In this document: in pieces, positions 140 to 26,289 of the stretch
Position numbering within the stretch: position 1 is the first letter of the stretch
How the letters are laid out: each line of letters begins with the position of its first letter
Source of the DNA: Ceratodon purpureus
Lineage: Eukaryota; Streptophyta; Bryopsida; Pseudoditrichales; Ditrichaceae
DNA: 64,000 nucleotides
Assembly: GCA_014871385.1 (NCBI GenBank)
Contig: CM026426.1
Coordinates: 64,275,877 to 64,339,876 of the forward strand
Direction: 5' to 3'
The notes under the pieces: generated by a model
What the model saw: only the letters and a program-made list of their open reading frames with translations
Told to the model about the DNA's origin: nothing
Databases searched by the model: none
Program-made: the position numbers and the translations under genes

Positions 140-840
140 TATTGGAATGATGTAGTGTAACCAGGTAACAGGGCCCGAGCAGACTCTTAGCAGGCACTTG
201 AGTGTATTTGATCGTGGTAGTGTAACCAGGTGGAAGGGCCCGAGCAGACTCTCTGCAGGCACTAGAAGGTATGTGATCTCGGTAGTGTAACCAGGGGGTA
301 GGGCCTGAGCAGACTTTCTGCAGGCTCTAATGAATCTAGAATTCAGTAGTGTTGCCAGGGGTAAGGGCCTGAGCAGACTGGCAGCAAGCACTAGAAGGTA
401 TGTGATCTCGGTAGTGTAACCAGCTGGAAGGGCCCGAGTAGTCTTGCAGCAGGCACTTGGAGGTATGTGATCTCGGTAGTGTAACCAGGTGGATGGGCCC
501 GAGCAGACTCTCTGCAGGCTCACCTGAATCATGAATTCAGTAGTGTTACCAAGAATAAGGAACTGAGCAGACTGGCAGCAGGCACTAAAAGGTATGTGAT
601 CTCGGTAGTGTAACTAGCTGGAAGGGCCCGAGCAGACTCGTAGCAGGCACTTGAAGGTATGTGATCTCGGTAGTGTTACCAGGGAGAAGGGCCCGAGCAG
701 AGTTGCACCAGGCTCATCTTAGAATTAAATTGATGTAGTGTAACCAAGTGAAAGGGCCTGAGCAGACTCGCTGGAGGCTGTTGAATCAATTGCATTGACT
801 TGGTGGAGCAAGGTGCAAGGGCCGAGGGAGAGTCGTGGCA
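140..840. repeat. 64-bp tandem array, copy 1
   Basis: About eleven degenerate units of roughly 64 bp. Each carries a GGGCCCGAGCAGACTC-like block and a GGTAGTGTAACCAGG block, separated either by GGTATGTGATCTC or by a GAATTCAGTAGTG variant. The GAGCAGACT core recurs near 172, 237, 303, 367, 430, 494, 559, 624, 686, 753 and 821. The open minus-strand frame across the array is a by-product of the repeat. The array lies just upstream of PM1, and a second block of the same family fills a PM1 intron. Nothing else is recognisable in 1-1310. Confidence 0.9.
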
Positions 841-1514
841 GGAAAGACACAAAGCTTATAGACATGTGCTGATGGTCTGCTCGTCTCCTAGCTTGCTTGC
901 AGCAGCGTTGTTTGGACTTATTTAATGTTGTTCAGGTGGCCGTTGACATTTGGTTTGGGCCGAGCAGGATAAATTTCTTTTTTATTTACTTGAATTCATC
1001 GACTCACAGAGGATAGTCAGGTGTGACATAGTGTACTAATTCTTCTGCTTCCTATCAGGGCAGCGAAGTTCTGTTGAGAATTAGGTACATTGTTTTTTAA
1101 TTCAGGCCGTATGTTGAGTTTAAATTGAAGCAAGGGCTATTGATCAATATTGATTCATATTGGATATTACTCTTTCTTTTTTTGGCAACTATTGTGCTCT
1201 GTCCTCAACCATTTATCGAAGAACTTTGATCATGCATAACTTTGATCAGAACTTTGTACCTGCTGGTCTGCATTCTCTCGTAAAATTCGAATTCATTATT
1301 CGCCTTTCTAATGTGGTATTGCATGAGATTGCAAGAGCACCAACCTAAAGTAGGAGGCAATTTGGATGAGTCCCCACTGGCCCTGACCCAAAAATTTGAC
1401 GGTCAAGATGGAGATTCAGATGGAGAAGCAGACTCAACTGGTGATACATTTGTGGGGAATGAGGACAAAATTCGGAACCGCCAGAAGCTAAATTTTGTTT
1501 CGACAATTGCTGAG

Positions 1515-1863
1515 CTCCGAATGCAGCCACATTATGCATCAAGATTTGAAGTTCCTCTTTGCCGTATGCTTGCAATGCCGATGGTGCGGCCTACGTTACA
1601 GAGTGACCTGTCCGGACTTGAGCAGGAATTTGTGCATGGCTATCGCGAGGGTGCCTCGGTATTCTACTTGTCAACCACTGACGAAGAGGAGAGAACCCGG
1701 GAGATTTTTGAAACTGACAAGGCCAAGTGGGGACCAATTTGGGACAAGAAAAACGATGAACTCAACAACTACCTCCTCTCCATTCCCGAGTTGGCTTCCC
1801 TTACCAATCTGATGTTTTTTGTTTGCGACGGTAACCATCGGTACTAGGCCTGGTGGAACCACA
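1515..1863 (+). other. ParB/Srx-like domain of PM1
   Basis: The exon encodes FEVPLCRM, a conserved EFVHGYREGASVFYL stretch and CDGNHRY. This follows the ParB N-domain order: a leading strand with an I/V-P motif, a helix followed by an HG turn, then D-G-x-x-R. In PM2 the same place reads WDGNHRHKAW, matching the ParB GxxRxxA box. Here the codon after Tyr is TAG (1846-1848), and the conserved AW follows in frame after the stop. The ParB assignment is by motif pattern and needs a profile comparison. Confidence 0.6.
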
Positions 1864-3365
1864 TTGAGCGCCTGCACAAGACGGATGAGTCATGGCACTA
1901 CTCGGTTGATTCTATTCTCTTGGAAACTAGAGGTAGAATTGGCCTAGTAATGCAGGTGATGCACAACATCAACAAGTGAGTTGCACCTTCAAACTATAGC
2001 ACCTTCAATACACTCAGCTGATTTAGAAACCATTCTATAATTTAATTCTTGTGCTGATATTTTGCGTGACAGGAACAGAGAGGATGCTCATGTTAAGACC
2101 AATCCAGTTCACACCCTCTTCAGGGTACAGAAGTACGGCCTCATGCCACTAGAGCAATTCAATGATATTTTGTCAAGTACTAATTTGAAGAGGTGCAAGA
2201 AAACAAAGCACAGTACTTGGCAAACCTTGCGTGTGAACGTGTTCACGAGTTTCATTTTCCAGGTACATTTTCATGATCCCCTTTCATTGTTATTTAATTT
2301 TTCTGCATGGTTGACTAGCTAATGATTTCAATAATCCCGAATGTCGCCAAAAACCACACGCAGGCTGTCCTAGTCTTTGTCGAATGCCATGGGGCATCAG
2401 CAGTGGATGATCATCATGGTCCGCCATGGTCTATGTAGCATTATTCAGCATCATCTATCTATGTCCATCGCAGACTATGCTAAATCTCTATCGTAGCATC
2501 ATTGGATCATTGGTAGCTTGGCTTTAAAGAACCTTGTCTGACTAAGTTCGTATTTGACATTAAGTTGGTATTTGCCCCTGTGGGAACTGGATTGGTATTG
2601 CAGCATGAGATAAGCCGTGCCGCTGATGATGGTCTTCGAGGATTCCTTGAACACAACGACGGCGATGTCACAGAAGCTGATAAGATTAGGGCCATGAAGG
2701 CCGCGGTGAAGAGCAAAACACGAAAACTTCGCTCTAAAATGAGTAAGTTTATTGCCGTGGCGAACCCTGAACTGACACCAGCGTGGCTGCGTGAGGTAAG
2801 TATCCGTTGCTTATCCCTTAACACTATTATTTCCTAACTTCTAAACATTCATTTAAGCTTACAAAGAACCAGTGATTCAGTCTCTTCGTATGTCGAAAGT
2901 TCACATCAATGTTGATAGTTCATTTCGAATGAGAGTTTTCAGTTCAGTACCTCGCGTTTCCCTCTACCTCAGGTCAATGCTCATTTAGCAGTGTCTAGCA
3001 GTGCTGGAGCAAGTGTGCTTGGGGCCGAGCACACTTGGGCACTCCCATCACATGTTTGTTTTTCATCTCAAATCGATGAATGTTGGGAGAGACAAATTCT
3101 GTCCACGATAGTCCCAATCCAACTGTGCTCAGCCCCGAGCAGTCTCATTACGAAGGGTCTCGGTGATTGGACTCTCCATATTTTTTAAGGACATAGACAT
3201 TCTAGCTGAGGCATATGGACCATCACATTCCGGCATGCAAAGATTCTAGGACTGTTCTAAATCACAACATATAGAAGGAAATCATAGTCATTTGAATTGT
3301 CATTATTGCCTCTTCGTAGGTCATCATAGCCATATCGTTGGTCATCATAGGAAGTCCTAAGATAA

Positions 3366-3880
3366 GCAGACTCGCAGCAGGCACTTGGAGGTATGTGATC
3401 TCGGTAGTGTAAGTTGTAACCAGGGGGAAGGGCACGAGCAAACTCGCAGCAAGCACTAGAAGGTATGTGATCTCGGTAGTGTAACCAGCTGGAAGGGCCC
3501 GAGTAGACTCGCAGCAGGCACTTGAAGGTATGTGATCTCGGTAGTGTAACCAGGTGGAAGGGCCTGAGCAGACTCCCAGCAGGCTCACCTGAATCTTGAA
3601 TTCAGTATTGTTACCAGGGGGAAGCGCCCGAGCAGACTTGCAGCAGGCACTAGAAGGTATGTGATCTCGGTAGTATAACCAGGGTGAAGGGCCTGAGCAG
3701 ACTTGCAGCTGGCACTTGGAGGTATGTGACCTCGGTAGTGTCACTAGGTTGAAGGGCCTGAGCAGACTCTCTGCAGGCCTTTCTGAATTTACAATTCAGT
3801 AGTGTTACCAGGGAGAAGGGCCCAAGCAGACTCGCAGCAGGCACTTGGAAGTACTAGAATTCGGTAGTGTAATAAATCTC
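3366..3880. repeat. 64-bp tandem array, copy 2, inside a PM1 intron
   Basis: About eight units of the family seen at 140-840, with GAGCAGACT-like cores near 3366, 3429, 3492, 3557, 3623, 3686, 3751 and 3817. The array lies in the intron between PM1 exons ending at 2795 and starting at 4022. The homologous PM2 intron is also filled with tandem repeats, but of an unrelated sequence. Confidence 0.88.
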
Positions 3881-6022
3881 ATCATAGCATTGTCGAAGAT
3901 CATCATAGCCATCAATTACAGAATGTCAAGCACTGACCACCTTTCATATTGCAGAGTTTTCTGTTGCTCTAACAATCTCCCATTTGGATTCTTACAATCG
4001 AACTTTCCAGATCAATTGCAGGTGGAGCGGCATTATTAATCTAACACCACCAATACAGAGCTAACCATGGAAAAGTTGCAACTCATAGCCACGGCAAAGG
4101 CTACCCCCACGGCTAAGATCAGATGGCTTCAATTCTTCAACTCCTCCGCCGCCACCCGTGAGGCCCGGAAGATCGCATCGAAGCCCGTCAACGAAGAGAG
4201 GCTGACATCCTGGCTTGCGAGGGCAACTTTTTGGGCAGAGGTATGTTGCTATACATTTAGCACTTTAAATGTTTTGACTTGGATATATAATAACTAGATT
4301 CAGGCTAACTACTGTCTCTTTGAATTGCTCATATCAGCTATCAGAGCAGGCGTCCGCAAATTTCGAGGAGATTGTGCGACAGGACCAGGTCAGTATTGAC
4401 ATGACAGTCTCCACTGAGCCGATGACTCTAGTAGCTTACGTGGAGGACTGCCGAATGAAGCTCTGGGACCACGTTTTTAATTCATACTTCCGAGGAGCCG
4501 AAGGTTTCCAGAAACAACTCGAATTTCGGGAGTTCAAGGGAACAGATCTCATTGTCAGACGAGTTCTATTCAGGTGTACCCTTATGATCCAGTGGTTTGC
4601 ACAATCGTGAGGTTCATAAGTCCCACTGGTTAGTGGTTTGTTATTGACAGTCCTTAAAATTGCGTGGATTCTATGGTAATCATTCGTGCCGCAACTCAAA
4701 TATTTTCGAGTCTGCTTATTTGAATATGCTTGATACATTGAGACCAGAAAGGCTCCATTTGCTATGGAAATTGTCACCATGCTAGGCTTTTAATCACCTT
4801 GTCATGCCCACGATGTCTATGCTTACCATGCTTTCGGTTACCCTTCTATGCTGCCCTTGTCTAATATGCTACGCATAACTTGCTGCAATGGAATCGGGTT
4901 TCGGTGCTCATGAAACTGGTGATGGAATTCTTGCAGATATTTCAAGTACGAGCTCTTGGCCAAGCAGGCAATCAGAAAAGAGAATCTTCCAGTTTTTCTT
5001 ACCGCATGGGTCGACAGATCGAATGAAGCATGCATGTTCTCAGCTTCACAGCAGCGGACATGGACAACGTCTCATCTTACTGCTGGAGCATGGTACTTGG
5101 ACTGTGTGCCAAAATTTACTCCATCCTTTGAAATCGAGCTGCGGAAGTCGAGGGATGCCATCGGGGAGTCTGGTATTGAAATGGTCGATCTTCAAGGGAT
5201 AGAGGATGAAACTGAGCGGGCCAAGGCTCTTAAGAGAAGGATTTAGGAGGACCGGAAGAAGGCCCAGAAAGTAAGAGAAGCCGAGGAGAGGGCGGAGCAG
5301 AAGGAGCTGGAGAAGGAGCTGAAAGCAAAGGAAAAGTCGGGCAGAAAGGGCAAGAAGAAACTCAACACCCCTGGTCAGGATGATAAGAATAGTCCATCTG
5401 GCAATTCCGGCCACAAAGAGAAAACCAACTCCAGGGGTACAAAAAGAGGATCTTCCTATGATCAGCTCAATCAACTCCTGGAATTCAACGATGCTGGGGA
5501 GTGTGGCCAGAATTCCGAGTTAATCTTGAACTCATCCCTCATAGATGTCCTCGCAGGCAGTGGTAATGAATTCACTCCCATGTACCTGGAGATCAAGCGT
5601 ACCCTGCTTAAGGTAATCCAGATCACATGCATTTCGAACTTGTTATAATTTTTGGATGAATTTGCTCATGCCATGATGCCATGGGCATCCCATGATGTGC
5701 CATGATACCATGGTCGTGGCGGGTAAGGGCCTCTGCACCAGCTTGCTATTTAATTGCCCACCAGCTTCCTCTTGACCAGCCTGTTCAGATGATATTCGTT
5801 TGTAAGGTTTTGTGCTTTCTCTCCTAGTTTTCGTTCTTAATTTTGTCCATGTAACCTGGTGGTCTGGCCCGAGCAGAGTCTAGAGCAATGACACCGCAGG
5901 CAATCTGAGTTGGCCTTTTGAAGTGATGCGGGTATTTGCAGCTCGATTTATTTAGAATCATGCTCGTAGTTTTGACTTTTTACCATACCACTGACTTTCC
6001 TTGAAATTGAATACCTGTACAG

Positions 6023-7502
6023 GTCACCAATAGGAGAAGCCTCTTCATGAGTGGGAAACACGTCAAACATCACTTTGTCGACCTTATTATTGCAGATCTA
6101 GCTGAGGGCCTTCCTGTCCCCGGCGTTTCAGACCCACCTACATCCATCCCTGCTTGGAACGAAGACTCTACTGATTTCTGGCAGAACACCTTCGACTTTG
6201 CCGAGAACCACCTGCACGATGACGGAGCCATGATTCTTTTTCATCCGTATCATGCAGCAACAAAATCAAATATCCTAGGTTACTGCAATGCATTCAATTT
6301 CAGAGTTCGCAAGGAATGGTGGGCAATGAACCGACCCCACCTGACATCACCCTTCGATCCGTTAGTTACTGTAAGTTTCAATGCAATATATAAATCCCCT
6401 CATTTTATTGGACTATCATCTGACCTCTTAGTGATTGTCACGAATTGCCTATAAAGTCTTTCTGATAACCATTGAAAATTAAGTCTCAATTTACCTCGAA
6501 TCTGATGAGTTGGCTTTTGTTACCAGTACTTCAGTTCTTTTATCCCAATCCCCTTCTTGCCATAGAGAAAGTGTACGTCCCTGGCATGGTATGACCATAA
6601 ATTTAAAACTTGCATTCGTGGGGTGCCCACGGCCTAGGCATGAAATGGACTCTAAATTTGTTACTGCATTTTTCCTTGAGGTTATGGCCCATGCATTGCC
6701 TCTGCATTGACTTGGTATGGCCTGCAATTCGGAATTTGGATTTGTGGAATAGTCATGCCTGCTCTGGTCTGTCCCCACGCATTGGTATGGCCTGCGATTT
6801 GGAATTTGGATTCGTGGATTAGTCATGCCTGCTCTGATCTGTCCCCACGCAGAGTTCTAACATTGCAGCCTGGAACTCATGTGGTACTAACTTGCTTGTT
6901 GTTCGTTCCTGGATTATAGACACTTCGGTTTGGGATTACACTGCTGGTGAAGACCGGACCTCCTCCTTCAAAGTTTGCTTTTCGGCCTGTTCCTAAGCTG
7001 CTGAGCCGTCACGGTGTAGACGTGGGTCGTGACGATTGCTTGCAGAATATAGTTCTGCCAGGGAACCAGATGTGCAATGGTCCGAAGCCATGGAGAGGCC
7101 CTCGCGAGAAGTCCGTGGTTCTGATGGAAATGTTGATTGAAGCATGCTCCGATCCCGGGAATGTTGTGTTTGAGTGCACAGCAGCAACTGGTATGTTTTT
7201 GGTTTGCCTAAAATTAATGTTTTACCTTCTGTCTGAGAACTTTGCCTACTGTTTAATGTTTTTGAGTAGCACTAATAAAGTAAAGTGGATTGTACTTCAG
7301 GTCCGTCAATCCACGCTTGCCGCAACGTTGACCGCCACGTCGTGGCCTTGGAGGCTGATCCAGACATTTTCAAGGCTTTGTTGCAGCCGTTAATTCGGAC
7401 TTCCACAGTTCCTCAAGCCACCAATACTGAGCATGTCATTGTTGATGATCCTGAGGGTGAAGTTCCCGTTGCTAAGATCCTTAAGAGATCTCGATTCCAG
7501 AA
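6023..7502 (+). other. Permuted N6/N4-type methyltransferase fold of PM1
   Basis: Exon 6023-6370 encodes VDLIIADLAEGLPVP, in the place of motif IV (usually D-x-P-P-Y in this class), followed by a DDGAMILFHP strand like the next conserved strand of these enzymes. Exons 6920-7190 and 7301-7502 encode PWRGPREKS (motif X-like), then SDPGNVVFECTAATG (motif I-like, replacing DPFxGSG) and HVVALEAD (motif II acidic residue). This order, IV before X, I and II, is that of class-beta amino-methyltransferases. The missing PPY makes catalysis doubtful. Confidence 0.65.
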
Positions 7503-8063
7503 GTGAGTTTAGATACTTTTTCCCTAGTGTTACGTTTTATGTACTCGCATTGAATTTGGAGTGGATTTATAAACAATGTGCCATTTACATTTGCAGATGC
7601 GATAATATGGGCTATCCTGTGCATCGTCCTTTTTTTTCTGATCCTAATTTCTACCCTAGTCCTCCACCATCATGGCATCTTCCATCTTATGCGAACAATG
7701 CTGCCATCGAACTAGCTCGTGGTTCTTATCGTTACTACAGATCTGAAAATGCACCAAATAGATCATTGGAGTTTGTTGATATTGAAGCAGATGAGTCAGA
7801 GGAGGCTGAAGACGAAGAAGAGCCATCCACTATCACTTTATCGTCCTCTGAAGACGAAGAAGACTGCAAAGAAGAGCGCCGTATCGTACGCTCTTTGAGT
7901 ACATTGGAGGATATTTTGGATATGTGAGTTAGAGGCGGTAGCGAGTAGATAGGGAACTTTTATGTACCTTTCTAATTTATTAACATCTCCTTCTGTTTTT
8001 GTTGTTCATTTTAGTCGGTTCAAAGTGTCTGAATTTCAACCCGTCATGCGCTTCAAAATGTGA

Positions 8064-9855
8064 TACACCTCTCAGCGTTCGTCACGCTACTTTGTGAATG
8101 TTATGATAATGTCATCATTTTATTTTCTTTTCCCATCTCCTTTTACATTTCCCATTTATCCCTTGAATAGGCACCCTTCTTCTCTATTAACACCGCCTTC
8201 ATTTTTATTTTTATTTTTTCTCCTTATTATCCATCTTATATTCTCATTTATCCCTTCCACTCCCAAGCTCACCGTAGTACCCGTTATGATTTCGTTTTTG
8301 TATTCCACTTCCCCTTTTTATTTTCCATCTATCCCTTTCATTGGCACCTTTCTTCTTTATTAACGCCTCTATTGTTTTTTTTTGGTTTATTTTTCATTCC
8401 ATCTTATATTCTCATTCATCCCTTCCGCTCCCAAGTTTATCCTCACTCCCATCCTCGTTTTCATTTTGTTTTTCTTTTTTCCGTTTCCTTTTCCTTTTTT
8501 CCATTTATCCCTTCCATTGGCACCTTTCTTTTTTATTAACACTTCCGTTTTTTTATTTATTTTTATTTTTTACATTCCATCTTATATTCTCAATTATCTC
8601 TTCCACTCCCAAGTTCATCCTCACTCCCATCCTCGTTTTCATTTTGTTTTTCTTTTTCCCGTTTCCTCTTCCTTTTTTCCATTCATCCCTTTCATCGGCA
8701 CCTTTCTTCTTTATTAAGGCCTCCACTTTTTTATTTTATTTTTTTTTCCTTTTTCATCCATCTTAAATTCTCATTTATCCCTTCCTCACCCAAGCTCACC
8801 CTCATTCCCATCCCCGTTATGTTTTTGTTATTATTTTCCACTTTCCTTTTTTATTTTCCATTTATCCCTTCCATTGGCACCTTTCTTCTTTATTAACACC
8901 CCCTTTGTTTTTTTCTTTTTTTTTCATTCCATCTCATATTATCATTTATCCCTTCCGCTCCCGAGCTCACCCTCATTCTCATCCTCGTCTTCACTTTATT
9001 TTTCTTTTCCCATTCCCTTTTTTTTCGATTCTGCATTCCATCGTATATTTTCACCTATCCTTCCTTTGCCGCTTTCCACCCTCTTTATCCAATAGTCTGA
9101 TTAATACGAAGAAAGTAAAGCCAGTTTCCTAATGTCAGAGCAGTGATTTCCAGAATCCATGCTGCGCCTATAAAGTCTGCTCGGGGCCTTGCAATAAGTT
9201 CCTGGTCATGCTTATCCACTCTCATTCTATAAATTCGTGGCCTTCAGAGCATTGCTCCACACCGGATAGACTTGAGAGAGGCAGCTCATGAGAACACGCT
9301 CGACAAGAGTGGAACTATAAGCTCCAAAATAACATACTTAACTCCTTTGAGCGGATTATTATATCAAATTCCGCCCTTTTTTTCCCCTCTCTCTTTTAAT
9401 GAAATAATAAGCACAAGAGGAAGAGTTCTAAGTACAGCGTTTTTAGTGTTAAGAAACTCATTTTACATGTTGCTCAAATCTGGACTCTCATATTCATGAC
9501 TGAAGAGGAACCATATTACATTCAAGTGGATTAACAATCTTGATGTACAGTTGAAGGCCGCCACCCATTTACAGAGGCAACACTCATCTATGTGCCATCT
9601 TCTCAAACCCATAACAGCAATGATTATCATCCCAAAAAAACAAAACATATCTCCATATAAGTAGAGGTACTAATCTACCGGCACTTATGACCGAAGCCTG
9701 CATTTATAGTCAACATATGGATAAGCAGCTAACAGCTCCGCATGTCTATATATGGTGCGTGAAGCTCCTTATGGTAAAGGAAGCTAAATCTGCACTACGA
9801 GATACACTCTTTAGCATCTTGGAGGACCCCACTAGTTTCCTATTTCTTAATGTAA
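8064..9855. repeat. Pyrimidine-rich satellite-like array (8090-9130) and unassigned DNA
   Basis: From about 8090 to 9130 the plus strand is T/C-rich and made of degenerate repeats. The landmark GGCACC(C/T)TTCTT recurs at 8170, 8343, 8519, 8697 and 8876, a period of 173-179 bp. Phe/Ser-rich open frames here are products of composition. From 9130 to 9855 I see no gene. A block at 9176 (CTGCTCGGGGCC) resembles the core of the 64-bp repeats. Confidence 0.75.
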
Positions 9856-10227
9856 TCAAGCCATCGGGGGACACTCCATCCAACTCTTGTCTATATCAAA
9901 CCAGCAAGTCTCGCCATCCGAAATGATCACTTCGGGCAGCTGAACAACTGGATTCACAACGGCGGTGGAGGCCAAGAGATACGGGATAAGGGATGCCTCC
10001 ATGATTTGGACGAGCTCAATGGTACAGAGCACTGTCCAGTGCCATTCCCCAGCGCCAACATGGAGGCGTCCGATGTGCCTATATGGCGGCAGGTCCATGC
10101 CTAGAAGCCTGGCGAGCTCCACCTCCACCAGCCATGCCCGCAGCTCCTCATAACTCGCCGGTCCCTTTGGGGCTAGACCCACAGCCGCTCTCGTCCTCTT
10201 CGACATCGCATTTCGGACCTTTGGCAT
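9856..10227 (-). CDS. Hypothetical 123-aa protein
   Basis: A single open frame starts with ATG at 10227 and ends with TGA at 9856-9858. The GC-rich coding composition stands out from AT-rich DNA on the left. The protein begins with a basic stretch (MPKVRNAMSKRTRAAVG) and continues with a mixed soluble sequence containing GEWHWTVLCTIELVQIME; I see no signal peptide or known domain. It lies outside element A, whose left target duplication is about 190 bp upstream of the start. It could be a host gene or part of element D. No splice partner was found. Confidence 0.45.
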   Translation of the reverse strand: MPKVRNAMSKRTRAAVGLAPKGPASYEELRAWLVEVELARLLGMDLPPYRHIGRLHVGAGEWHWTVLCTIELVQIMEASLIPYLLASTAVVNPVVQLPEVIISDGETCWFDIDKSWMECPPMA

Positions 10228-10415
10228 CGCACCCCAGAAGGGTTTGTTGTTCCTAAACCTTTCAAGCTAGACTACAGATTTCCTTCCCCACGTCGTTCTG
10301 CACCTCTTCATGCAACAAGGAATGGCGGTACTTAACCCTAAATCCTAAAACGCCACCTGAAAGCGAGCTCAAAATCCTGGATTCGCCACTTCAAGAGGAT
10401 GTCACCTGCTGCAGA

Positions 10416-10426
10416 GTGCTAGGAAT
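10416..10426 (+). repeat. Left target-site duplication of element A
   Basis: GTGCTAGGAAT. The identical 11-mer is at 39156-39166, directly outside the other end of element A. Eleven bases falls in the 9-11 bp range usual for MULE insertions. Confidence 0.85.
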
Positions 10427-10557
10427 GAGGAATGCAATCTTGTGAGCAGCGAGTAGCGAGCAGCGAGCAGAGTACTGTTCATCGGGCAGTTTCTGAATTT
10501 TTTTGAAAATTTTCGTTTTTTTCTGAAAAAAATAATAAGAGCGCCTATTACCGTGGA
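10427..10557 (+). repeat. Left TIR of element A
   Basis: Begins GAGGAATGCAATCTTGTGAG, runs through GCAGCGAG-type 7-bp units (10445-10475), then an A/T-rich stretch, and ends with CCTATTACCGTGGA (10544-10557). The inverted counterparts on the right are TCCACGGTAATAGG at 25613-25626 and CTCACAAGATTGC at 39137-39149, separated by the LTR retrotransposon. The middle is poorly conserved, so this is an imperfect TIR. Confidence 0.8.
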
Positions 10558-10842
10558 ATCTTTAAAGAATCTGAAGGGAATCTTTGGGATTCAATGGCCG
10601 TTTCGGCTGGTCCCGGGATCGTTAATATTGGATTTTTTTAATTCGAAGACATGTATAGATATACGTATCCGGTAAATTATATACTTTATAGATAGGATGG
10701 AAAAATGTACAAAATTTAACTGCCTATACATCGGGTATACTTAACAAAGTATACTGAAACTCGAATAATACAATCTAGTATAAGTACAAATAAAACTGGA
10801 TGTACATACGAAGAAGCTAACTAACTAGAGTCAAGGTAAAAT

Positions 10843-11442
10843 CTAGAAGTAATCAGGGCTGCGCCAAACTTGGCTATCATCGGTATCAGTGTCATTGAAC
10901 ATAATTGGGTAACCCTCATTATCTCCCCAGCCGTTGGACTCGGTCGAGGCTTCATCATAATCAGAGGAAGCTCCATCGTGAAAAAGGCGCTCCTCTGGTG
11001 CTGGAGGAGCCTCGTAGCTGTAGTCAATCTGGCCGCCAAAGTACTCCTCTAAACCGTCGGAGTCGTAGCCATCACCAGGACAATAGTCATCACCAGGGGC
11101 GCCATGAACATCCAACCCCCAGGGATCCTTGGGCTTCGAATCTCCATGGTCTGAGTGGGGAACCTCAACACAGATGTTGGTGTTCCCCACTTCAACCACC
11201 TGGATGGTGAGCTCATCGTCGCAGCCTCCAATGTCAATTCCTGCCTCCTTAAGATAGTCCAAAGCTCCGACAGGCTTGCGGACTGGAGGTGCCTCTGGAT
11301 CCACCGGAGTACCCTCCTCTCCGTTCTCCGGCATTGATAAAGGGGTCTTCAAAGGAGTGCGATCCGATGCAGCGCCTGGGAGGATTTCGAGAGCCATTCC
11401 AAGATCAGAAAGCCTCTTGTGCTGAGCCCGTGTGAGCACCAT
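10843..11442 (-). CDS. Acidic 199-aa protein of element A
   Basis: ATG at 11440-11442, TAG at 10843-10845, uninterrupted. It opens with MVLTRAQHKRLSDLG, a short basic helix, and then becomes strongly acidic, with DDELTIQVVEVGN, repeated Asp/Gly/Tyr runs (GDDYCPGDGYDSDGLEEYFGG) and a C-terminal NDTDTDD stretch. No domain was recognised. It is the gene nearest the left TIR and points outward, like PM2. Acidic tails of this kind are common in chromatin or DNA-mimic proteins, but no role is assigned. TIR and AT-rich DNA (10558-10842) lie downstream. Confidence 0.6.
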   Translation of the reverse strand: MVLTRAQHKRLSDLGMALEILPGAASDRTPLKTPLSMPENGEEGTPVDPEAPPVRKPVGALDYLKEAGIDIGGCDDELTIQVVEVGNTNICVEVPHSDHGDSKPKDPWGLDVHGAPGDDYCPGDGYDSDGLEEYFGGQIDYSYEAPPAPEERLFHDGASSDYDEASTESNGWGDNEGYPIMFNDTDTDDSQVWRSPDYF

Positions 11443-12484
11443 GGTGGTGTGTCGAAAGTGGAACTCCCGAAACCTGGAAATGAATGTAAAGAATTTGATT
11501 AAATGGAGTTGAGTAAGTGAAGAGAATTTACTCCCATAAGACGTTCACATACTCAATTCGAAATGATCAAATGAAGAAGCTAAATGACGTAAAACAACAA
11601 GAGCAAGATCCGCATTGAAGTGATTTTATAAGGTATAAGACATGAACAAAACCAGATTACCAAGAGGACTTACCGTAATGAAAGCAATCGCAGACAGTTC
11701 TGATGCTGATATTAAGCACTGGAATACTGTACAAGATGAAGAGTTTAGTTTTGCGGTTTTCAATGAGATAATGTTAATGTGCAACAGTTGATCAGTGCTA
11801 GAAGAGCAGTGCTTGCAAAGATAGAGAAATTACAGAAAAGGAAATCAGTATGAGCCGCGGCAAAATTCAGTAAATACGGAAAAGGAAATCAGTAGAAGCC
11901 GCAACAAAATTCAAAAAATACAGAAAAGGAAACCAGTTCAAGCCGCGACAAAAAAATTCAATATAAACAAATAAAAAAAACAGTGGCAACTAGAACAACA
12001 CAAAATGACAAAGTGCTGAAACTAACGAGCAATGCAGATCGATAGAAGTAGGGATTCGAGAAGAGCGCAAATCTGCAAGCAAAAAGGAGACAATGGTCAG
12101 AAACATGGTTACTGACATCGCATGGCTACCGACAAAAGCATAGCAAAACCCGCGACCAAAAGCAATAGCAAAACCCGAAACCAAAAGAAATAGCAAAACC
12201 CGCGACCAAGAACAATAGCAGAACCCGAAACCAAAAGCAATAGCAAAACCATACTACAGTAAGCAATGGCAAAACCCGAGACTAAAACCATACTACAGTA
12301 ACGCAAAACTGAAACCAAAGTACGATAAATCTGAGAACAAACTCCGGGAAACTAAGAACTAAAACTAACATCTAACAAAGTAGAAACTAACATGATCAAC
12401 ACTAACAACTCACAAACATAAACTAACATACTAACCTTGTTAGGACGTGAAAATAAGAGAAAGTGGGGAGAGAAACCCGCTCCC
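11443..12484. other. Non-coding; degenerate A-rich tandem repeat at 12115-12300
   Basis: No gene is supported here. Between about 12115 and 12300 the motif AGCAAAACCCGCGACCAAAA and close variants repeat every 20-40 bp. Similar AAATCAGTA-GCCGC-ACAAAATTCA units occur at 11840-11960. A bridging role as the 5' region of the acidic gene is possible. Confidence 0.5.
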
Positions 12485-12493
12485 TCTTATATT

Positions 12494-13580
12494 GGCTCTC
12501 GGATCCGAGAGCCAGTGAGGGAGGGGAGGGTGGCGGCGCACCAGGGTTAGGGGTTAGAGGGGAGGGGAAGGACGTGTCTCGGATCCGAGACACAGTCCCT
12601 CGGATCCGAGACACGCAGGAAGAGAGAGAGAAAGAGAGGGAGAGAGAGAGAGAGGGGGGATGGAGGGAGGTAGAGGGAAAGGGAGGGAGGGAGGGATGAA
12701 TGGAGAGGGGATGGGGGGAGGGGCAGGGGGAAGGGGGAGGGAAAGGGGAGGGGCAGGGGGAAGGGGGAGGGAAAGAGGGGAGGGGCAGGGGGAAGGGGGA
12801 GGGAAAGAGGGGAGGGGCAGGGGGAAGGGGGAGGGAAAGGGGGGAGGGGCAGGGGGAAGGGGGAGAGAAAGGGGGGAGGGGCAGGGGGTAGGGCGGGGGT
12901 AGGGGGAGGGAAAGGGGAGGGGCAGGGGGGGTTTTAATTTTTTTGGGTAATTTTTGGAAAAAAAAAAAGCCGAGACAACGTGTCTCGGATCCGAGACACG
13001 TTGTCTCGGCTCCGGGGGAGGGTAAGGGAGGGGTTTAAGGGAGGGGAGTAGGGGGAGGGTAGGGGGAGAGTAGGGGAGGGGAGAGGGGTTTTTCTTTATT
13101 TTAGTTTAATTTTTTAAGAAAATAAAAAGCCGAGACAACGTGTCTCGGCCGGGTAGGGAGGTGGTAGGGGAGGGGTTAAAGGGGTTGGCGAGGGGGAAAG
13201 GGGGGATAGGAAGGGTGAAGGGAGAGAGGTTTTTTTTTTATTTTAGTTAATTTTTTAAGAAAATAAAAAGCCGAGACAACGTGTCTCGGATCCGAGACAC
13301 GTTGTCTCGGCCGGGCAAGGGGGTGGTAGGGGAGGGGTTAAAGGGGTTGGCGAGGGGGAAAGGGGGGATGGGAAGGGTGAAGGGAGAGAGGTTTTTTTTT
13401 ATTTTAGTTAATTTTTTAAGAAAATAAAAAGCCGAGACAACGTGTCTCGGCCGGGTAGGGGGGTGGTAGGGGAAGGGTTAAAGGGGTTGGCAAGGAAGGG
13501 TAAGGGTAGGGTAGGAAATAATCGGAGAAAACAAAAAGCCTTGAAAACGTGTCTCGGATCCGAGACACGTTTTCAAGCAC
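12494..13580. repeat. G-rich minisatellite interleaved with GGATCC-centred palindromes
   Basis: A 20-bp palindrome lies at 12494-12513. From about 12614 to 12930 the plus strand is a G/A minisatellite of roughly 31-32 bp units (GGGGAGGGGCAGGGGGAAGG type), with strong quadruplex potential. From 12969 come units of 140-161 bp, each with a GCCGAGACAACGTGTCTCGG block. Complete 42-bp palindromes are at 12969-13010 and about 13270-13311; half-copies are near 13129 and 13431; a variant lies near 13540-13577. Gly-rich frames are compositional. AT-rich DNA from 13580 to 14053 holds no gene. Confidence 0.85.
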
Positions 13581-14053
13581 TTGTAGAGGACGTGTAAATA
13601 TTATTGAAATGTAGGAAATATAAAGAAATGGAATCGAGTACTAAAAGTTTCTATGTGGTTTCTAATTTGTAATAAATGATATGCCATCATAAATAGAAAA
13701 GAATGAAAATTGCATTATCAATTAATGCATTGAAACGAACTAGGGCAAACTGCAGGAAAAAAATTAAATTTGACGTAATGGAAGAACACAATCTCAGCCG
13801 CATAAAACGAAAGCCAGAATATTATATATTCATAGAAGTATGGGTATACAAAATGGAACGTGACATTCCTGTTCAGGCTAGGCCACAGACAAAGTCCTGT
13901 CCCACAGATTAACGCAACTCAAAATGTAATCTGTCTAAACTGAATGAAACATACGTAGATAGTGGGTATTATCCTATAAAATATAAGTATCATATAGTCT
14001 ATAGAAGAGTGGCATAGGTGGTGCTGACTTGAGGACCGCGAGCAGCAGTGCGC

Positions 14054-17000
14054 TCACTTTATATCTGCAAAAAAATATATAATTAGAAAGAGTCTGAAAA
14101 GATGATTCAAATTCGAAAAATAAAACTTCCAAAATATTTATAGTAAAAACAGTAATCACTCACAGGAGCGTCTAGGAGCTTTCTTCGAAGGAGGCTCTTC
14201 AGCGTGTTTGGATGGTCCACGTTTCTTTGGAGGAGGAGTAGGTGCCGGCGAATCATCCTCGACAGCATCCGGAACAAGTGGAAGCAGAATCTCATCGTGA
14301 AGGTGCTGGTCCTCCTCGAGAGCAATTAGGTGCCTGTGCATATATTTGCAGGCCTTGATAGAGGCGCCTGGAAAAGGAACAGAAATAGGAAGTAAGATGT
14401 AGAGGAGGATTCAAGAAACGATGAAACTAACAAGTGTGACAGAATTTAAGTTTACCTGTGGATGTGGTGAGGTCCATAACTATGTCCTCCTCTTGACTTA
14501 GAAGGTCCAACAAACCAATGAAAAGGTCTTCTGACTTCTCACGTGGACCACGCCATGGACCACCACTGACTTCTCTCACTGTCTAGTTATCCTGGTTTAT
14601 CTTGTTAACAAGGAAACCTAGATTAACCATGTCAACGCCCTTAGCCTCAAGGTTAGATTGCTCATAGAAATGGAATCGAGAAGCAGGAATGCCTAAAGCG
14701 GCATTTTCTTCTCGCGCAAACAGCATGGCGTTAGTGACCGTGGTCTGTATATCTGGAAAATTAGGGCTGTTTGTCTTAAGGTCGTTCATGACGATCCACT
14801 TGTGTTGCACCTTGAATCCCGCCCAATGAGACCAGCCCTCCAACTCCGACAGAATGAACTTACTGTCAGGATAAAACACAAGGACTACTCCATTGTCTGC
14901 GATCCACTCACTGGCCCATTCAAAGTGTTTATGGATCCAGGGAGACTCTGACTTCTGGGAATCCGGATCTGTATCAATGGGCAATACATTCCACTCTGGA
15001 ATGGCATCATCATCAAAGAAGGGCACGGGCAAATTCTCTGGAACGTCAAACACAATAAGGTCAACTGCTTTGACATTCTGAATTTCACCCTTGTACTGGC
15101 GACGCTTGTGCGACTGGTGGCCACCCACGAACCGACCGACCGCTTTCCAATCGTTTACAGATCTTGGATTGTTGTTGCTAATGTCGTCCATAATCTGCGC
15201 TGCACTCTTATTGATCAGCAGAACATCCGGTGGATGATTGGGATAGGCCTTCGACTTGACAGAATAGTATGTCTGACTAAGGACCTGGCTGGGCAGAATA
15301 GAGACTCCCTGCGATCTCTGAGAGGGCATACTACTGCCTGAAGGGGAAATTCCCTCTTCGTCCATAGCGCCTTTTAGTCCCTTCTGCTTGACAAGCTTAG
15401 CAAGTCTCTCATTATTGACCTTATCCTCAGCTGCCTTCTGCTTGGCCAGCGTCTTCTCCTTGTCGCTCTGAGCCTTCGCTGCAGCCCTTTTCTCTTCGGC
15501 CTGCTTCTTAACGACTGCCTTTGCTCGATCTTTCTCAGACATGAATTCCTCCGCGGTTGGATTCTGCGTATTGACTCCTTGCGCCTCCATCTCCTCTCTC
15601 TCCCTGACACATTTGGCTTTGTAGGCGCGCTCAGAGTCCTGCTCTTTCTCTTCCTTTTTGAGCTCGAGATACCACGGACACTCTTGGAGATGAGGGCGAG
15701 AGAAATGTTTCCTCTGATAATCGTTGAAGATACAGTCGGGGCTGGAGGTATCAAGCCACTTGGAGAAACGAATGGGAATGTTGTCAACTGTAATGGCATC
15801 TTTCCTGAGAAGCTCCCAGTAAAAATACCTTACAATCATCCGGTTCACAGCCAGCTTAGTGTCTTTTTGATCATTGAAAGGCTTGGACTTCACAAACCCG
15901 CCATACCTTCCAAGAAATTCCGGGAACCCCTTCTTCCAAAGTTTGTGAGCTCCTGTGCTAACGAACTTATCAATGGACACAATACCCATTGCAGGTGCCT
16001 GAGGTGGTATAACGATCCCCTCGTCCTCAAGAATTTGGGCATATTGAATCCCAGTTTCTTCTTCAAGCTGCAAGGAAATATGATGTTCACTGTCAGCCCA
16101 TGTGAATAGATTCACCGATATAGCTGACTTTCGTCATCTAATTGCAAAACTATCACCTTCAATGATGACTTTTACAAAAATCATTGCATTGAACTATGTC
16201 TTTCGACTCGGATAGATATAAATTGGTATCTCAAAATAAGCAAACATTTTGAAAACTGAAATGAACTTATTCCGGCCCAGAAAGCTGCAACTTCCACCCA
16301 AGGTCGAAGGGCTGATGTTGAGGCGGGATACTTTGGGAAGTTATAAATTTCACGTGATTCTTTGCTCATATTCCACCAGTGTACCCATCTCTCCTTGTAT
16401 TTTGCTGGTACTTTGGCAGTTGCAAACAGCTGGAGCTTCTCAGGATTCATCTCTGTTTTGCTTCTGAAAGTGCTGAAATGGGCTTCAATCTACAAGAAAT
16501 CAGTGAAGTTTATGTCAAAACATCATGAAACTCGAAGAATACCATATACATAGTCATAATTTAGGAAAATGATGCAAATATGATGATAAATTAGCTATTA
16601 TAGGGGGCCTAAAAACGTCTCTCGGATCCGAGAGACGTTTTTAGGACCTCTGAAAGAGCTAATTTATGATGATAAATTAGCTCTTTCAGGGGGCCTAAAA
16701 TCGTCTCTCGGATCCGAGAGACGTTTTTAGGCCCCCTATAATAGCTAATTCATGATGATAAATTAGCTATTATAGGGGGCCTAAAAACGTCTCTCGGATC
16801 CGAGAGACGATTTTAGGCCCCTGAAAGAGCTAATTTATCATCATAAATTAGCTCTTTCAGGGGGCCTTAAATCGTCTCTCGAATCCGAGAGACGATTTTA
16901 GGCCCCCCGAAAGAGCTTATTTATCATCATAAATTAGCTCTTTCAGGGGGCCCTTTAGCGTCTCTCGGATCCGAGAGACGCTAAAGGGCCCCCTGAAAGA

Positions 17001-18810
17001 GCTAAAATATGATGATATTTTAGCTCTTTCAGAGGGCCTAAAATGGTCTCTCGGATCCGAGAGACGATTTTAGGCCCCCTAACAAAGCTAATTTATCATC
17101 ATAAATTAGCTTTGTTAGGGGGCCTAAGATCGTCTCTCGGATCCGAGAGACGATTTTAGGCCCCTTCATGTGCTGCAATATCATCATATTGCAGCACATT
17201 TAGGGGCCTTTTAACGTCTCTCGGATCCGAGAGACGTTAAAAGGCCCCCCAAATGTGCTGCAATATGATGATATTGCAGCACATTGGGTCTAAAATGACC
17301 CTCGGAAAGGGTCCCTCGGATCCGAGAGACCCTTTCGGAGGGTCAAAGGAAGGCAAAATAACTTAAAAAACCAAAGAAAAACAAAGCAAAACAATAGAAC
17401 AGTCTTACCTCTCTGATGAATCCCTCTCCATTCTTCGGATCCGCTATTGCCAGTAAGCGTTCCATGTCAGTGTGCAGGTGCGTTTTGCAAGCCTTTATCG
17501 CTGCATTTGCACGTTCAATTAGAATGTTGCTGTCTCCTTGTCTCTTTTCACCGTGAGTTATTAAGGAGTCCTCGTATATCTTCATTGCTGCTTTCTGTGC
17601 ATTGATAATTTCTCTCTGCAAAAGAGAGATATTGAGTAAGTCCACGGGTACTCCTATGCCATTATAATCAACTTTTAGAAGACATAGAAGTGTTTTCGTA
17701 AAATACCTCATACAGTAAGTTGCAAAATGCATCCCCTGTTAGATGGTACCACTTCTTATTCTTTGTGACTCGGTTCCACTCTGTCAGACTGTTCTCATAA
17801 TCGCGTTCAGAGATGAGATTTCTCAACTGGTCGAAGGGCATACTACCAAACTGTATGACTCTTCGGAGCTCGTGAGTCCAATGTTGGTTCACATGGTCGT
17901 ATTCGTTCTTCCTGATATTGAATAATCCGATGATTAGTACTTCACAGTAACCAAAACTTTCCATAAAAGACAGTTGTAGAAGTGAACTTACTTGTTCCAC
18001 TGTGTCATCGCATGTAGAAGTCGTTGCTTGTTCTCCTCTGTGACACATATTATATGTGTCTTGGGGCTTGGATGAAACGCTGGATTTGGATCATGGGAAT
18101 GAAAGTCTCTTATGACCCTACTCCATGCCTTGTGCCGGTGATTACCATCCCAGATGTAAAACATCTTATTCGAGTACTTTTCCAAACCAGGTGTTCTCTT
18201 CAACCTCTCCTCAAATGTCTTCTCAGCCTCCCTCCAAATCGGATCCCACGAGCCTCGCTGCTCTTCAGTTTCCTCCTGAGTCTCCATTGTATAACTTCGG
18301 GTGGCCACGTAGAAAACAGATGACCCAAGTCTGTAGCCGTGAGCAAACTTAGATTTCAGCTTCTCTATGTCAGGAGCTAATGCGCCGCGAACCTCTGTCA
18401 TTGGAATCATTCGACACAGAGGAATTTCAAGCTCATAGACGGGTTTGTCAAGGCTTTCAGTCACTGCTTCTTGGCCTCTCCCCTTCCTTCTCTGCCGCAG
18501 TCTCTCCATGGTTACATGAATGCCAGGATCAACATCACCCTCTCCAATGTGCGGAGGTGCATCCATGTCCACGGGCTCGTAAGGTGTAATCTGTCCATAC
18601 ACATAGGCGCACACAGTATGAGTATGTTTCCCGAATTCCTGCGCAGGAAAACAATGTCGCTTTCTTAAATCATCTAATTCTCTGAGCTGCAGAATCGTCC
18701 CTCGGATCCGAGACACGTGTTTCTACTGCCCACCCTCCGATCTAAACCTAATTTGTTCTGGCCCCTCTTACCTGCGAACCCTCAGAAACCACAGACTCAC
18801 GCTCCTCCAT
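14054..18810 (-). pseudogene. ParB-like / DNA methyltransferase-like fusion gene, copy 2 (PM2), cargo of element A
   Basis: Exons on the minus strand: 18810-18772 (MEERESVVSEGSQ), 18686-17992, 17911-17707, 17615-17409, 16489-16271, 16067-14456, 14365-14164 and a tentative last exon 14064-14054. The ParB-like part has YELEIPLCRM, KFAHGYRLGSSVFYV and WDGNHRHKAW. A Lys/Glu-rich coiled linker lies at about 15370-15680. The methyltransferase fold has VDLIVFDVPENLPVP (motif IV place), PWRGPREKS, DIVMDLTTSTG (motif I place) and HLIALEED (motif II). Defects are TAG at 14583-14585, a net 2-nt loss near 14340 that breaks the frame between ACKY and MHRH, and a GT to AT change at the expected donor 16270. 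Intron 16490-17408 is an 86-bp palindromic array. Exons of the gene at 19361-20225 might belong upstream. Confidence 0.8.
16590..17345. repeat. 86-bp palindromic array in a PM2 intron
   Basis: Nine centres GTCTCTCGGATCCGAGAGAC (or near variants) lie near 16617, 16705, 16791, 16876, 16962, 17048, 17134, 17217 and 17312, about 86 bp apart. Between them a second symmetry centre (ATCATCAT or ATGATGAT) joins AAATTAGCT-type arms. Arm sequences change from unit to unit (for example CTTTCAGGGGGCC, TTTGTTAGGGGGCC, CAGCACATTTAGGGGCC), yet each stays nearly self-complementary with its neighbour. Confidence 0.92.
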
Positions 18811-19360
18811 TGTCATACACAAGAAATTCACTACTTTAAAGAGACCCACAAAACCCTCTCTGTTTATTTACTCCCTAGAACACCCCAACAATCCTCACAA
18901 ACTAACTTCCGAACACACCCTCAACAACTTAAACCACTAAATCTTTACACCCTCAACCTCAGTGAACCCCTACCTAAACCCTGAAACATAGAACCCCCCT
19001 CCTCAAAGGAACCCGCGGACTCTCCCCCGCAAACGCCCTACATCCTCACACTCACGAAACACACACCCACATACTCACAACAAGCTCTGCCCCCTCCACC
19101 ACCACAATACTCTCCAAACCCCTCTCAAACAACCGCGGACTCCTCCACCAAGAAAGAGATGAAAAGAGCTTCTCTCAGTACCCCCACCCTTTTATACCCC
19201 CCGCGGCCCCCACCCTCTTAAATGCTCACCCGCGGACCCCCACCCACTGCTCGCGCAATCACACAGACACTCTAAACAGCAAGTTCTCAATCCGAACTGA
19301 TATAGAAAATTATTCAAACAGCGATGACCAAATTCATAAGAATGTCTCTCCACTGCTTAC

Positions 19361-26130: not shown

Positions 26131-26138
26131 TATATAAG
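26131..26138 (+). promoter_or_regulatory. TATA box of the 5' LTR
   Basis: TATATAAG in GGGGTATATAAGCGAGGG, about 150 bp upstream of the LTR ORF start at 26290. Transcription would start near 26160, leaving the ORF and over 3 kb of the LTR in the RNA. Confidence 0.7.
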
Positions 26139-26289
26139 CGAGGGTGTTAGGGTTTGGAGTTCCTTTTTGCGAACTGGGAGTAGAGAGTGAAAGAGCGGTG
26201 AGGTGTCTTTGACTTTTCCGATTCACCGGCAGTTGGATTGCCGGGTTTCTTGCTGTCGGATCGTAGAGGGAGAGAAGTGAGGAGTAGAG

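What the first reader, a model, noticed from the sequence alone, without database searches (positions are those of the whole stretch)
1331..18810. New-looking eukaryotic gene family joining a ParB-like domain to a permuted N6/N4 methyltransferase fold
Seen: PM1 and PM2 both have DGNHR-type ParB motifs, a charged linker, then motif IV, X, I and II regions in class-beta order, with shared intron positions. Known: ParB-methylase fusions occur in bacteria and phages; bdelloid rotifer N4CMT is a documented capture of a bacterial amino-methyltransferase by eukaryotes. Inference: an old prokaryote or phage-derived fusion gained introns and spread with a DNA transposon.
Basis: partly seen in the sequence, partly recalled or inferred. 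Interest (0 to 1): 0.95.

Follow-up and report, generated by a model that had tools for sequence, protein, structure and literature searches.

The report
Moss transposon carrying ParB-like methyltransferase gene
A moss genome holds hundreds of copies of a ParB-like motif, in the copies tested mostly tied to a bacterial-type DNA-methyltransferase fold; one lineage of this gene rides in a DNA transposon whose own non-coding DNA is filled with a private 12-letter palindrome, which suggests a selfish system by which the element recognises itself.

Summary
PM1 (window 1284-7502, +) and PM2 (18816-14053, -) are full-length homologues (28% identity over 978 aa, E 1e-109) sharing five intron positions and phases. 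The methyltransferase is confirmed: PF01555 in 7 of 7 rows (6 over the cut-off; PM1 under it), profile hit to DpnA at 4e-11. The ParB fold is not confirmed: DGNHR is invariant, but no profile or profile-profile test passes, and structure prediction was off. Both window copies carry stop codons; copies with the main exons open exist.

New: PM2 is the second gene of a DNA transposon of about 15.4 kb with TIRs and 9-bp target duplications (4 of 4 copies). It faces a MULE-like transposase gene (16 of 17 transposase copies on two contigs have a divergent DGNHR nearby). Its methyltransferase exon is under purifying selection. The four copies read in full carry 18-19 CTCGGATCCGAG each, none in the flanks read; a third lineage has GCCGTTAACGGC arrays; PM1 has another repeat. 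This resembles the VANDAL/VANC anti-silencing transposons of Arabidopsis with a different protein. I propose that the protein recognises its lineage's motif to protect or license its element; binding and methylation are untested.

The parts
10427..39157 (.). Whole PM2 transposon copy: right end at 10427, left end at 39157; interrupted by a nested LTR retrotransposon
   Evidence: Homology to three other copies ends at 10427 and is cut at 25765 by the LTR element; TIR core at 10435-10453 (+) and 39130-39148 (-), 0 expected by chance
10418..10426 (.). 9-bp target site duplication GCTAGGAAT (a preceding T is shared too)
   Evidence: read by eye
39158..39166 (.). Second copy of the 9-bp target site duplication
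   Evidence: read by eye
14053..18816 (-). PM2 gene, 8 exons by hand: 18816-18772 (tentative), 18686-17992, 17911-17707, 17615-17409, 16489-16271, 16067-14456, 14367-14164, 14064-14053; one in-frame stop (codon 952) and a non-GT donor after 16271 (intact in the three other copies read)
17992..18686 (-). PM2 ParB-like exon with the DGNHR motif at 18149
14456..16067 (-). PM2 exon with charged linker and methyltransferase motifs IV (DVPEN) to X and first half of I
14164..14367 (-). PM2 exon with second half of motif I, motif II and a basic tail
1284..7502 (+). PM1 gene, exons 1284-1975, 2073-2262, 2604-2795, 4022-4240, 4338-4573, 4937-5612, 6023-6370, 6920-7190, 7301-7502 (5' and 3' ends not fixed); three in-frame stops (codons 188, 364, 613)
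   Evidence: copies up to 94% identical elsewhere have the exon-1 frame open; their other exons were not checked
20414..25150 (+). Divergent MULE-like transposase gene; ORFs 20414-20953 (start exon, tentative), 21477-22505, 22509-23714, 23771-25150; C-terminal CxC...CxH (SWIM-like)
   Evidence: one stop inside the window copy
10846..11544 (-). Further conserved ORF of the element (233 aa, acidic C terminus), function unknown
16579..17275 (.). Array of 86-bp units built on CTCGGATCCGAG, in the PM2 intron between 17409 and 16489
12498..13564 (.). Six CTCGGATCCGAG sites downstream of PM2 (12498, 12578, 12599, 12984, 13285, 13553)
17315..25488 (.). Dispersed CTCGGATCCGAG sites at 17315, 18701, 21273, 25435, 25477, non-coding by the gene models used
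152..778 (.). PM1 65-bp tandem repeats (GGGCCCGAGCAGACT unit) upstream of the gene
3415..3872 (.). Same 65-bp repeat in the PM1 intron that corresponds to the PM2 array intron
25766..39119 (+). Nested LTR retrotransposon; direct repeats 25766-29410 and 35465-39119, 99.3% identical

Best explanation
PM1 is a homologue from a sister lineage whose element was not delimited. SHOWN: the gene travels with a divergently transcribed transposase gene between TIRs and makes 9-bp target duplications; the pair is kept in subfamilies whose methyltransferase exon is only 38-42% identical; the methyltransferase exon is under purifying selection; each of three lineages carries its own repeated motif in non-coding DNA, a perfect 12-bp palindrome in two of them. 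INFERRED: the protein recognises its lineage's motif (through the ParB-like part, the methyltransferase part or both) and acts there with S-adenosylmethionine, so that the element escapes host silencing or is licensed for transposition, as VANC does for VANDAL elements by another protein. Lineages with DQPF/DQPY/DTPF at motif IV may methylate an amino group (6mA or 4mC). The PM1 and PM2 lineages lack the aromatic residue and may bind without methylating, or use altered chemistry.
For: Mobile unit: 24 copies (window included) of the PM2 methyltransferase exon at 93% identity or more among 83 scored. Three copies read over 26 kb plus the window copy share ends; 9-bp duplications in 4 of 4. The right-end TIR has 84 hits at up to 2 mismatches, 0 reversed. 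Partnership: 16 of 17 transposase exons listed on C1 and C2 have a divergent DGNHR within 12 kb (found at 4.1-6.2 kb); shift means 0.05 and 0.11. Within-gene linkage: 10 of 12 PM2-type and 5 of 7 PF01555-found methyltransferase exons on C1 and C2 have a same-strand DGNHR within 9 kb upstream; shift means 0.09 and 0.06. Selection: dN/dS of the methyltransferase exon against L010 is 0.06-0.22 for the 12 other open copies L011-L022 and 0.06-0.41 over all 22 comparisons; transposase 746-aa ORF 0.06-0.21 among four copies. Fold: PF01555 at E 0.001 or better in 7 of 7 rows, 6 over the cut-off; DpnA 4e-11, CcrM 0.001. Palindromes: 19, 19 and 18 per element, 0 in about 10.6 kb outside it for each of 3 copies; 18 of 18 window sites non-coding by the models used; 14-mer 1160 sites against 0 reversed; 8 of 18 clusters on C1:1-19.3 Mb within 12 kb of a family hit, shift mean 0.74. 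Third lineage: GCCGTTAACGGC 13 times in 4.7 kb of L044 with two families of arms, 1460 sites against 6 reversed. PM1 motif: 1141 hits against 0. VANC parallel: passages of PMC5735166 and PMC10398659.
Against: No test shows which protein binds the palindromes, and no binding, methylation or expression datum exists here. The ParB fold failed every statistical test. Motif IV in PM1 and PM2 is not DPPY-like, and the motif IV half alone does not match DpnA significantly. 10 of 18 palindrome clusters on C1:1-19.3 Mb have no listed family hit nearby, and the largest of 5000 shifts reached the observed 8. PM1 has no demonstrated transposase or termini. The ParB exon gives mixed dN/dS (0 to 0.31 among E1, E2, E5; 0.55-0.89 against the window copy), and two of the three comparison copies carry a stop themselves (E2 in the ParB stretch, E5 in the transposase).
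Confidence: 0.55

Rival explanations
1. The palindromes are binding or structural sites of the transposase (as subterminal TnpA motifs in Spm, recalled), and the ParB-like methyltransferase does something else.
For: On C1, sites lie about 1.7-1.9 kb from the transposase exon in elements of three subfamilies (coordinates). Transposase is better conserved between subfamilies (84% and 68%) than the methyltransferase (42% and 38%), and the motif is the same in these subfamilies.
Against: Sites are concentrated in an intron of PM2 and 3' of PM2, not only near the ends; the third lineage has its palindrome arrays upstream of and inside its ParB-like gene.
Confidence: 0.25
2. PM genes are passengers: a captured host or foreign gene that hitch-hikes without use to the element.
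For: MULEs often acquire further ORFs and genes (PMC6446971 passages); window copies are decayed.
Against: The divergent pair is retained in 16 of 17 transposase copies tested over deeply diverged subfamilies; dN/dS well below 1 in the methyltransferase exon; the noncanonical DVPEN recurs in P0008 and P0046.
Confidence: 0.08
3. The protein deposits an amino-methyl mark (6mA or 4mC) that serves the host, as bdelloid N4CMT does, rather than the element.
For: Bdelloid N4CMT is a captured bacterial amino-methyltransferase used by its host (PMC8885841 passages). Four of the six alignment rows that have the exon keep DQPF, DQPY or DTPF.
Against: Hundreds of motif copies, mobile elements and lineage-private motifs point to selfish use. 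A single-copy host gene was not specifically sought.
Confidence: 0.07
4. The genes descend from an endogenous large DNA virus.
For: ParB-fold/PF01555 fusions are frequent in phages (PMC12704722 section 7).
Against: No relative confirmed in viral contigs by two pattern scans; the ParB-like exon has only chance matches in phage records; copies have TIRs and target duplications of a cut-and-paste transposon.
Confidence: 0.04

Closest known systems
VANDAL transposons with VANC anti-silencing proteins (Arabidopsis MULEs)
   Same: MULE-type element with an accessory gene; lineage-specific short motifs in tandem arrays in non-coding DNA, including introns of the accessory gene (PMC5735166 passages; PMC10398659 passages).
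   Different: Here the accessory protein is a methyltransferase-fold protein with a ParB-like motif; in two lineages the motif is a perfect 12-bp palindrome; the element has clear TIRs (Vandal is called non-TIR in a passage of PMC13317346). Homology to VANC was not tested. Anti-silencing is not shown.
Phage ParB-CTPase fold / N6_N4 methyltransferase fusions
   Same: Same two-part plan; the GxxR P motif of the survey (PMC12704722, passages, abstract and section 7) corresponds to G-N-H-R here.
   Different: Eukaryotic, about 1000 aa, 7-8 introns, transposon-borne; ParB fold unproven; no close phage relative found.
Bdelloid rotifer N4CMT
   Same: Bacterial-type amino-methyltransferase in a eukaryote (PMC8885841 passages).
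   Different: N4CMT is a host gene with a chromodomain and SPPY; this family is multicopy, mobile in at least one lineage, and D(Q/T)P(F/Y) or degenerate.
DNMT-encoding retrotransposons; TET/JBP-encoding DNA transposons; SET-encoding MULEs
   Same: Transposons that carry a DNA- or chromatin-modifying gene (PMC5890265, start of abstract and passages; PMC12730594, passages).
   Different: Different enzymes: C5 methylation, oxidation or histone methylation rather than an amino-methyltransferase fold.

Membership tests
N6_N4_Mtase (PF01555), class beta amino-methyltransferases | PF01555 profile match | tested here: met
   7 of 7 rows at E 0.001 or better, 6 of 7 over the 26.7-bit cut-off; PM1 19.5 bits (under), PM2 domain 27.4 bits, PM2 whole protein 24.3 bits (under); 32 of 32 listed genome matches over the cut-off
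N6_N4_Mtase (PF01555), class beta amino-methyltransferases | Order IV, X, I, II | tested here: met
   (the IV half alone is weak, i-Evalue 1.6)
N6_N4_Mtase (PF01555), class beta amino-methyltransferases | Catalytic (D/N/S)PP(Y/F/W) motif | tested here: inconclusive
   Not met in PM1 (DLAE) and PM2 (DVPE); DQPF, DQPF, DQPY, DTPF in the four other rows that have that exon
N6_N4_Mtase (PF01555), class beta amino-methyltransferases | Methylates DNA | not testable with these tools
   needs bench or modified-base data
ParB/Srx (ParB-CTPase) fold | DGxHRxxA / GxxR P motif | tested here: met
   DGNHR in 21 of 21 rows of A3; 724 genome matches
ParB/Srx (ParB-CTPase) fold | PF02195 or related profile | tested here: not met
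   PF02195 not listed for any of 21 rows at E up to 10; DUF1015 E 0.13 (2 of 21), DGQHR E 0.13 (1 of 21), with unrelated families as good or better
ParB/Srx (ParB-CTPase) fold | Profile-profile similarity beyond the motif | tested here: not met
   HHalign probability 1.4-1.7%, within the shuffle range
ParB/Srx (ParB-CTPase) fold | Three-dimensional fold | not testable with these tools
   structure tool switched off
MULE transposons | TSD of 8-11 bp | tested here: met
   9 bp in 4 of 4 copies, read by eye
MULE transposons | TIRs | tested here: met
   imperfect, about 40 bp
MULE transposons | MULE transposase profile PF10551 | tested here: not met
   No Pfam match of the ORFs; the 93 listed PF10551 genome matches do not include the transposase places
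MULE transposons | SWIM-type CxCxnCxH | tested here: met
   read by eye in the 460-aa ORF; no profile match
VANDAL/VANC-like anti-silencing element | Lineage-private motif arrays in non-coding DNA of the element | tested here: met
   three lineages, three motifs; element ends known for the PM2 lineage only
VANDAL/VANC-like anti-silencing element | Homology of the accessory protein to VANC | not tested
   no VANC sequence was fetched
VANDAL/VANC-like anti-silencing element | Sequence-specific loss of DNA methylation | not testable with these tools
   needs methylome data

The most novel reading that the evidence does not exclude
A eukaryotic self-marking system: each transposon lineage encodes a ParB-like, SAM-dependent protein that loads on or methylates its own private 12-bp palindrome (GGATCC-centred in the PM2 lineage, GTTAAC-centred in a third lineage). 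This would be a parS-like or orphan-methylase-like mark by which an element tells its own copies from host and rival elements and overrides host 5mC silencing; protein and palindrome co-diversify.
Probability: 0.3. Interest if true: 0.96.

Novelty: new variant of a known kind. Interest (0 to 1): 0.86.

Why it matters
It would extend the transposon arms race from cytosine demethylation and histone marks to an amino-methyltransferase-fold protein. It also offers paired genes and palindromes from several lineages, with many nearly identical copies, in a moss. That makes it directly testable how selfish DNA tells self from non-self, and whether 6mA or 4mC has a site-specific role in a land plant. 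It also bears on how more than 700 copies of one motif came to fill one genome.

Tried and rejected
ParB by profile: Pfam, PHROGs, NCBIfam and PDB searches of ParB-exon alignments, HHalign against 46 YbdM-type proteins (YbdM and 45 of the 71 loci) and against a broader set of 24 with 26 excision variants, and an HMM search of 1171 ORFs of phage, E. coli and viral loci: nothing above chance. P1 Dmt as a ParB-methylase reference: Pfam shows no ParB domain in it.

Virus origin: no support. Prokaryotic genomes: none. The first full-length protein search (PM2) found nothing among 7992 scored candidates; alignment searches then found 47 (methyltransferase) and 516 (ParB exon, 120 listed) proteins from metagenome, ENA, NCBI and Logan contigs. 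Their hosts are unknown.

MULE by PF10551: not met. A first DGNHR pattern was mistyped by one N and gave 0; the corrected one gave 724. No phylogeny was built. Whether PM1 has a partner transposase could not be settled.

The Pfam and PDB tests were repeated with corrected rows (A5) and hold; the protein search and the PHROGs scan used A1 and were not repeated (no search left).

Literature: 10 searches. None of the rows shown was about a transposon-encoded ParB-like/amino-methyltransferase protein or this family; subscription papers and preprints are not held. A report on 4mC methyltransferases in Marchantia sperm is recalled, was not listed, and is not used.
Full report
WHERE. The window is G000:C6:64275877-64339876 in a genome of 362.5 Mb; contig C6 has 110.5 Mb. 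A 360-Mb genome with U and V sex chromosomes of more than 100 Mb each is described for the moss Ceratodon purpureus (PMC8000587, passages). The species name is therefore an inference.

THE TWO GENES. PM1 (1284-7502, +) and PM2 (18816-14053, -) were spliced by hand from GT-AG borders. The proteins align at 28% over 978 aa (E 1.4e-109), with five shared intron positions and phases and three extra introns in PM1. PM1 has stops at codons 188, 364 and 613. PM2 has one at 952 and a changed donor after 16271. Of the 24 copies at 93% identity or more (L009-L032, window included), 14 besides the window have no stop in the matched methyltransferase exon and a 568-aa frame. Of three copies read in full, one (E1, on C1) has the ParB-like exon, methyltransferase exon and both transposase ORFs open; E2 has a stop in the ParB stretch and E5 one in the transposase. 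The smaller exons were not checked in these copies.

METHYLTRANSFERASE. PF01555 matches 7 of 7 corrected rows at E 0.001 or better, 6 over the curated cut-off; PM1 is under it. The profile matches DpnA structures at 4e-11 and CcrM at 0.0012; the X-I-II part carries the score and the IV part alone is weak. Motif IV is DQPF, DQPF, DQPY and DTPF in four other rows, but DLAEG in PM1 and DVPEN in PM2. DVPEN recurs in P0008 and P0046 from other sources, so in the PM2 lineage it looks conserved rather than decayed. Loss of the aromatic residue argues against ordinary amino-methylation by that lineage (inference; in N4CMT, replacing Ser and Tyr of SPPY abolished activity, PMC8885841 passage).

PARB-LIKE PART. 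DGNHR is present in 21 of 21 rows, and DGNHRxxAW has 724 genome matches against 0 reversed. Its GxxR fits the P motif of the ParB-CTPase fold (PMC12704722 passages). But no profile passes: DUF1015 in 2 of 21 and DGQHR in 1 of 21 rows are sub-threshold, and unrelated families score as well or better. HHalign against phage ParB-like proteins aligns only 13-16 columns around DGNHR, and its score is reached by 10 of 100 and 5 of 24 shuffles. The structure tool was off. I therefore write ParB-like, not ParB.

THE ELEMENT. The PM2 methyltransferase exon has 83 scored matches in the genome: 24 at 93% or more, and further subfamilies at about 42% and 38%. Three copies read over 26 kb each (C5, C2, C1) share 15.3-15.5 kb with the same ends. 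The left end reads CAGCGAAGCAATCTTGTGAGCAGCGAG, the right end is its imperfect inverse, and the flanking 9-bp duplications are TTGCATGAG, CAGCTCGAT and ACTTGATAG. The window copy runs 10427-39157 with GCTAGGAAT on both sides. It is interrupted at 25766-39119 by an LTR retrotransposon with 3.65-kb LTRs, 99.3% identical. The right-end TIR has 84 genome matches at up to 2 mismatches, 0 reversed.

PARTNER. Divergent from PM2 lies a gene with ORFs of 746 and 460 aa in the C1 copy and 103 scored matches at 100% to about 66% identity. It has a C-terminal CxC...CxH as in SWIM fingers but no Pfam match, and listed PF10551 hits lie elsewhere. With 9-bp duplications it is MULE-like; MULE membership is not proven. 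On C1 and C2, 16 of 17 listed copies have a divergent DGNHR, at 4.1-6.2 kb (limit 12 kb; shift means 0.05 and 0.11). Same-strand DGNHR lies within 9 kb upstream of 10 of 12 PM2-type and 5 of 7 PF01555-found methyltransferase exons (shift means 0.09 and 0.06). The pair is kept where the methyltransferase exon is 38-42% identical to PM2 (for example C2:18.54-18.55 Mb and C2:6.42-6.43 Mb).

SELECTION. Against L010, dN/dS of the methyltransferase exon is 0.06-0.22 for the 12 other open copies L011-L022, and 0.06-0.41 over all 22 comparisons; L032 and L033 were left out because of gaps and L034-L038 were not tried. The transposase gives 0.06-0.21 (746-aa ORF) and 0-0.32 (460-aa ORF) among four copies. 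The ParB stretch is mixed: 0-0.31 among E1, E2 and E5, 0.55-0.89 against the decayed window copy. A further ORF (233 aa) gives 0.28-0.77.

PRIVATE PALINDROMES. CTCGGATCCGAG occurs 19, 19 and 18 times in the three elements and 0 times in about 10.6 kb outside each; the window copy has 18. All 18 are non-coding by the gene models used: an 86-bp array in one PM2 intron, a group 3' of PM2, and single sites towards and around the transposase. The arms differ between sites while the 12-bp core does not change. The 14-mer has 1160 sites against 0 reversed. Of the first 50 listed sites, forming 18 clusters on C1:1-19.3 Mb, 8 clusters lie within 12 kb of a family hit (shift mean 0.74, maximum 8); the other 10 are unexplained. 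Sites near transposases of the 84% and 68% subfamilies on C1 lie about 1.7-1.9 kb from the transposase exon, as in the PM2 element (coordinates).

A third lineage, next to the C1 copy (ParB exon at L044:6194-6766), has GCCGTTAACGGC 13 times in 4.7 kb with two families of arms, and 1460 sites in the genome against 6 reversed. The listed sites on C1 fall by eye into 4 groups (gaps up to 20 kb), 3 of which hold a DGNHR; no shift control was run for this. PM1 has 65-bp repeats upstream and in the intron matching the PM2 array intron. Their 15-mer GGGCCCGAGCAGACT has 1141 hits against 0; the first 100 listed lie next to PM1-type copies on C1 and C3, but the two C2 arrays lie 13.5 kb before and about 52 kb after a PM1 copy.

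MECHANISM. VANDAL transposons encode VANC proteins that bind lineage-specific motifs in tandem arrays of non-coding DNA, including introns, and remove silent marks (PMC5735166 and PMC10398659, passages). The layout here is alike; the protein is different. I infer that the PM protein recognises its palindrome and protects or licenses the element. Binding, chemistry and effect are not shown. The transposase as the palindrome reader is the main rival.

RELATIVES. No relative confirmed in viral contigs or prokaryote genomes; the ParB-like exon has only chance matches in phage records, the methyltransferase domain distant ones in 60. Relatives occur in metagenome-type contigs: 47 for the methyltransferase, 516 for the ParB exon (27 sequences read). 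Of those 27, 21 end exactly at the exon border of PM1 and PM2, and 6 run a short way past it, which points to intron-bearing hosts.

Noticed in passing
window 25766-39119: LTR retrotransposon with unusually long LTRs (3.65 kb, 99.3% identical) that hold ORF sequence of their own (26281 and 35980) and flank a gypsy-type polyprotein (by eye); inserted inside the TIR region of the PM2 element.
   Followed up: partly
L044:5314-10000 and L047 (C1:14.854-14.879 Mb): A PM2-type element sits inside an element of the third (GCCGTTAACGGC) lineage: palindromes of that lineage lie on both sides of it.
   Followed up: partly
window 10846-11544 (-): 233-aa ORF near the right end of the element, without stops in the four copies compared, no Pfam match; possibly a third element gene.
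   Followed up: partly
window 19791-20279 (-): 163-aa basic ORF between the two divergent genes, open in four copies, but with no synonymous change among them and 2-6 nonsynonymous ones.
   Followed up: no
G000:C6: Of the 24 PM2-type copies at 93% or more, 7 lie on C6 (window included); 4 of those carry stops inside the match, against 5 of 17 on other contigs. Decayed copies may pile up on the putative sex chromosome; numbers are small.
   Followed up: no
window 8115-9021: Pyrimidine-rich 178-bp tandem array just downstream of PM1.
   Followed up: no
window 39565-39851: 26 copies of an 11-bp repeat (CACATCACATA) just outside the PM2 element.
   Followed up: no
G000:C1: Ten clusters of the TCTCGGATCCGAGA palindrome without a listed ParB, transposase or methyltransferase hit nearby; possibly non-autonomous derivatives.
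   Followed up: no
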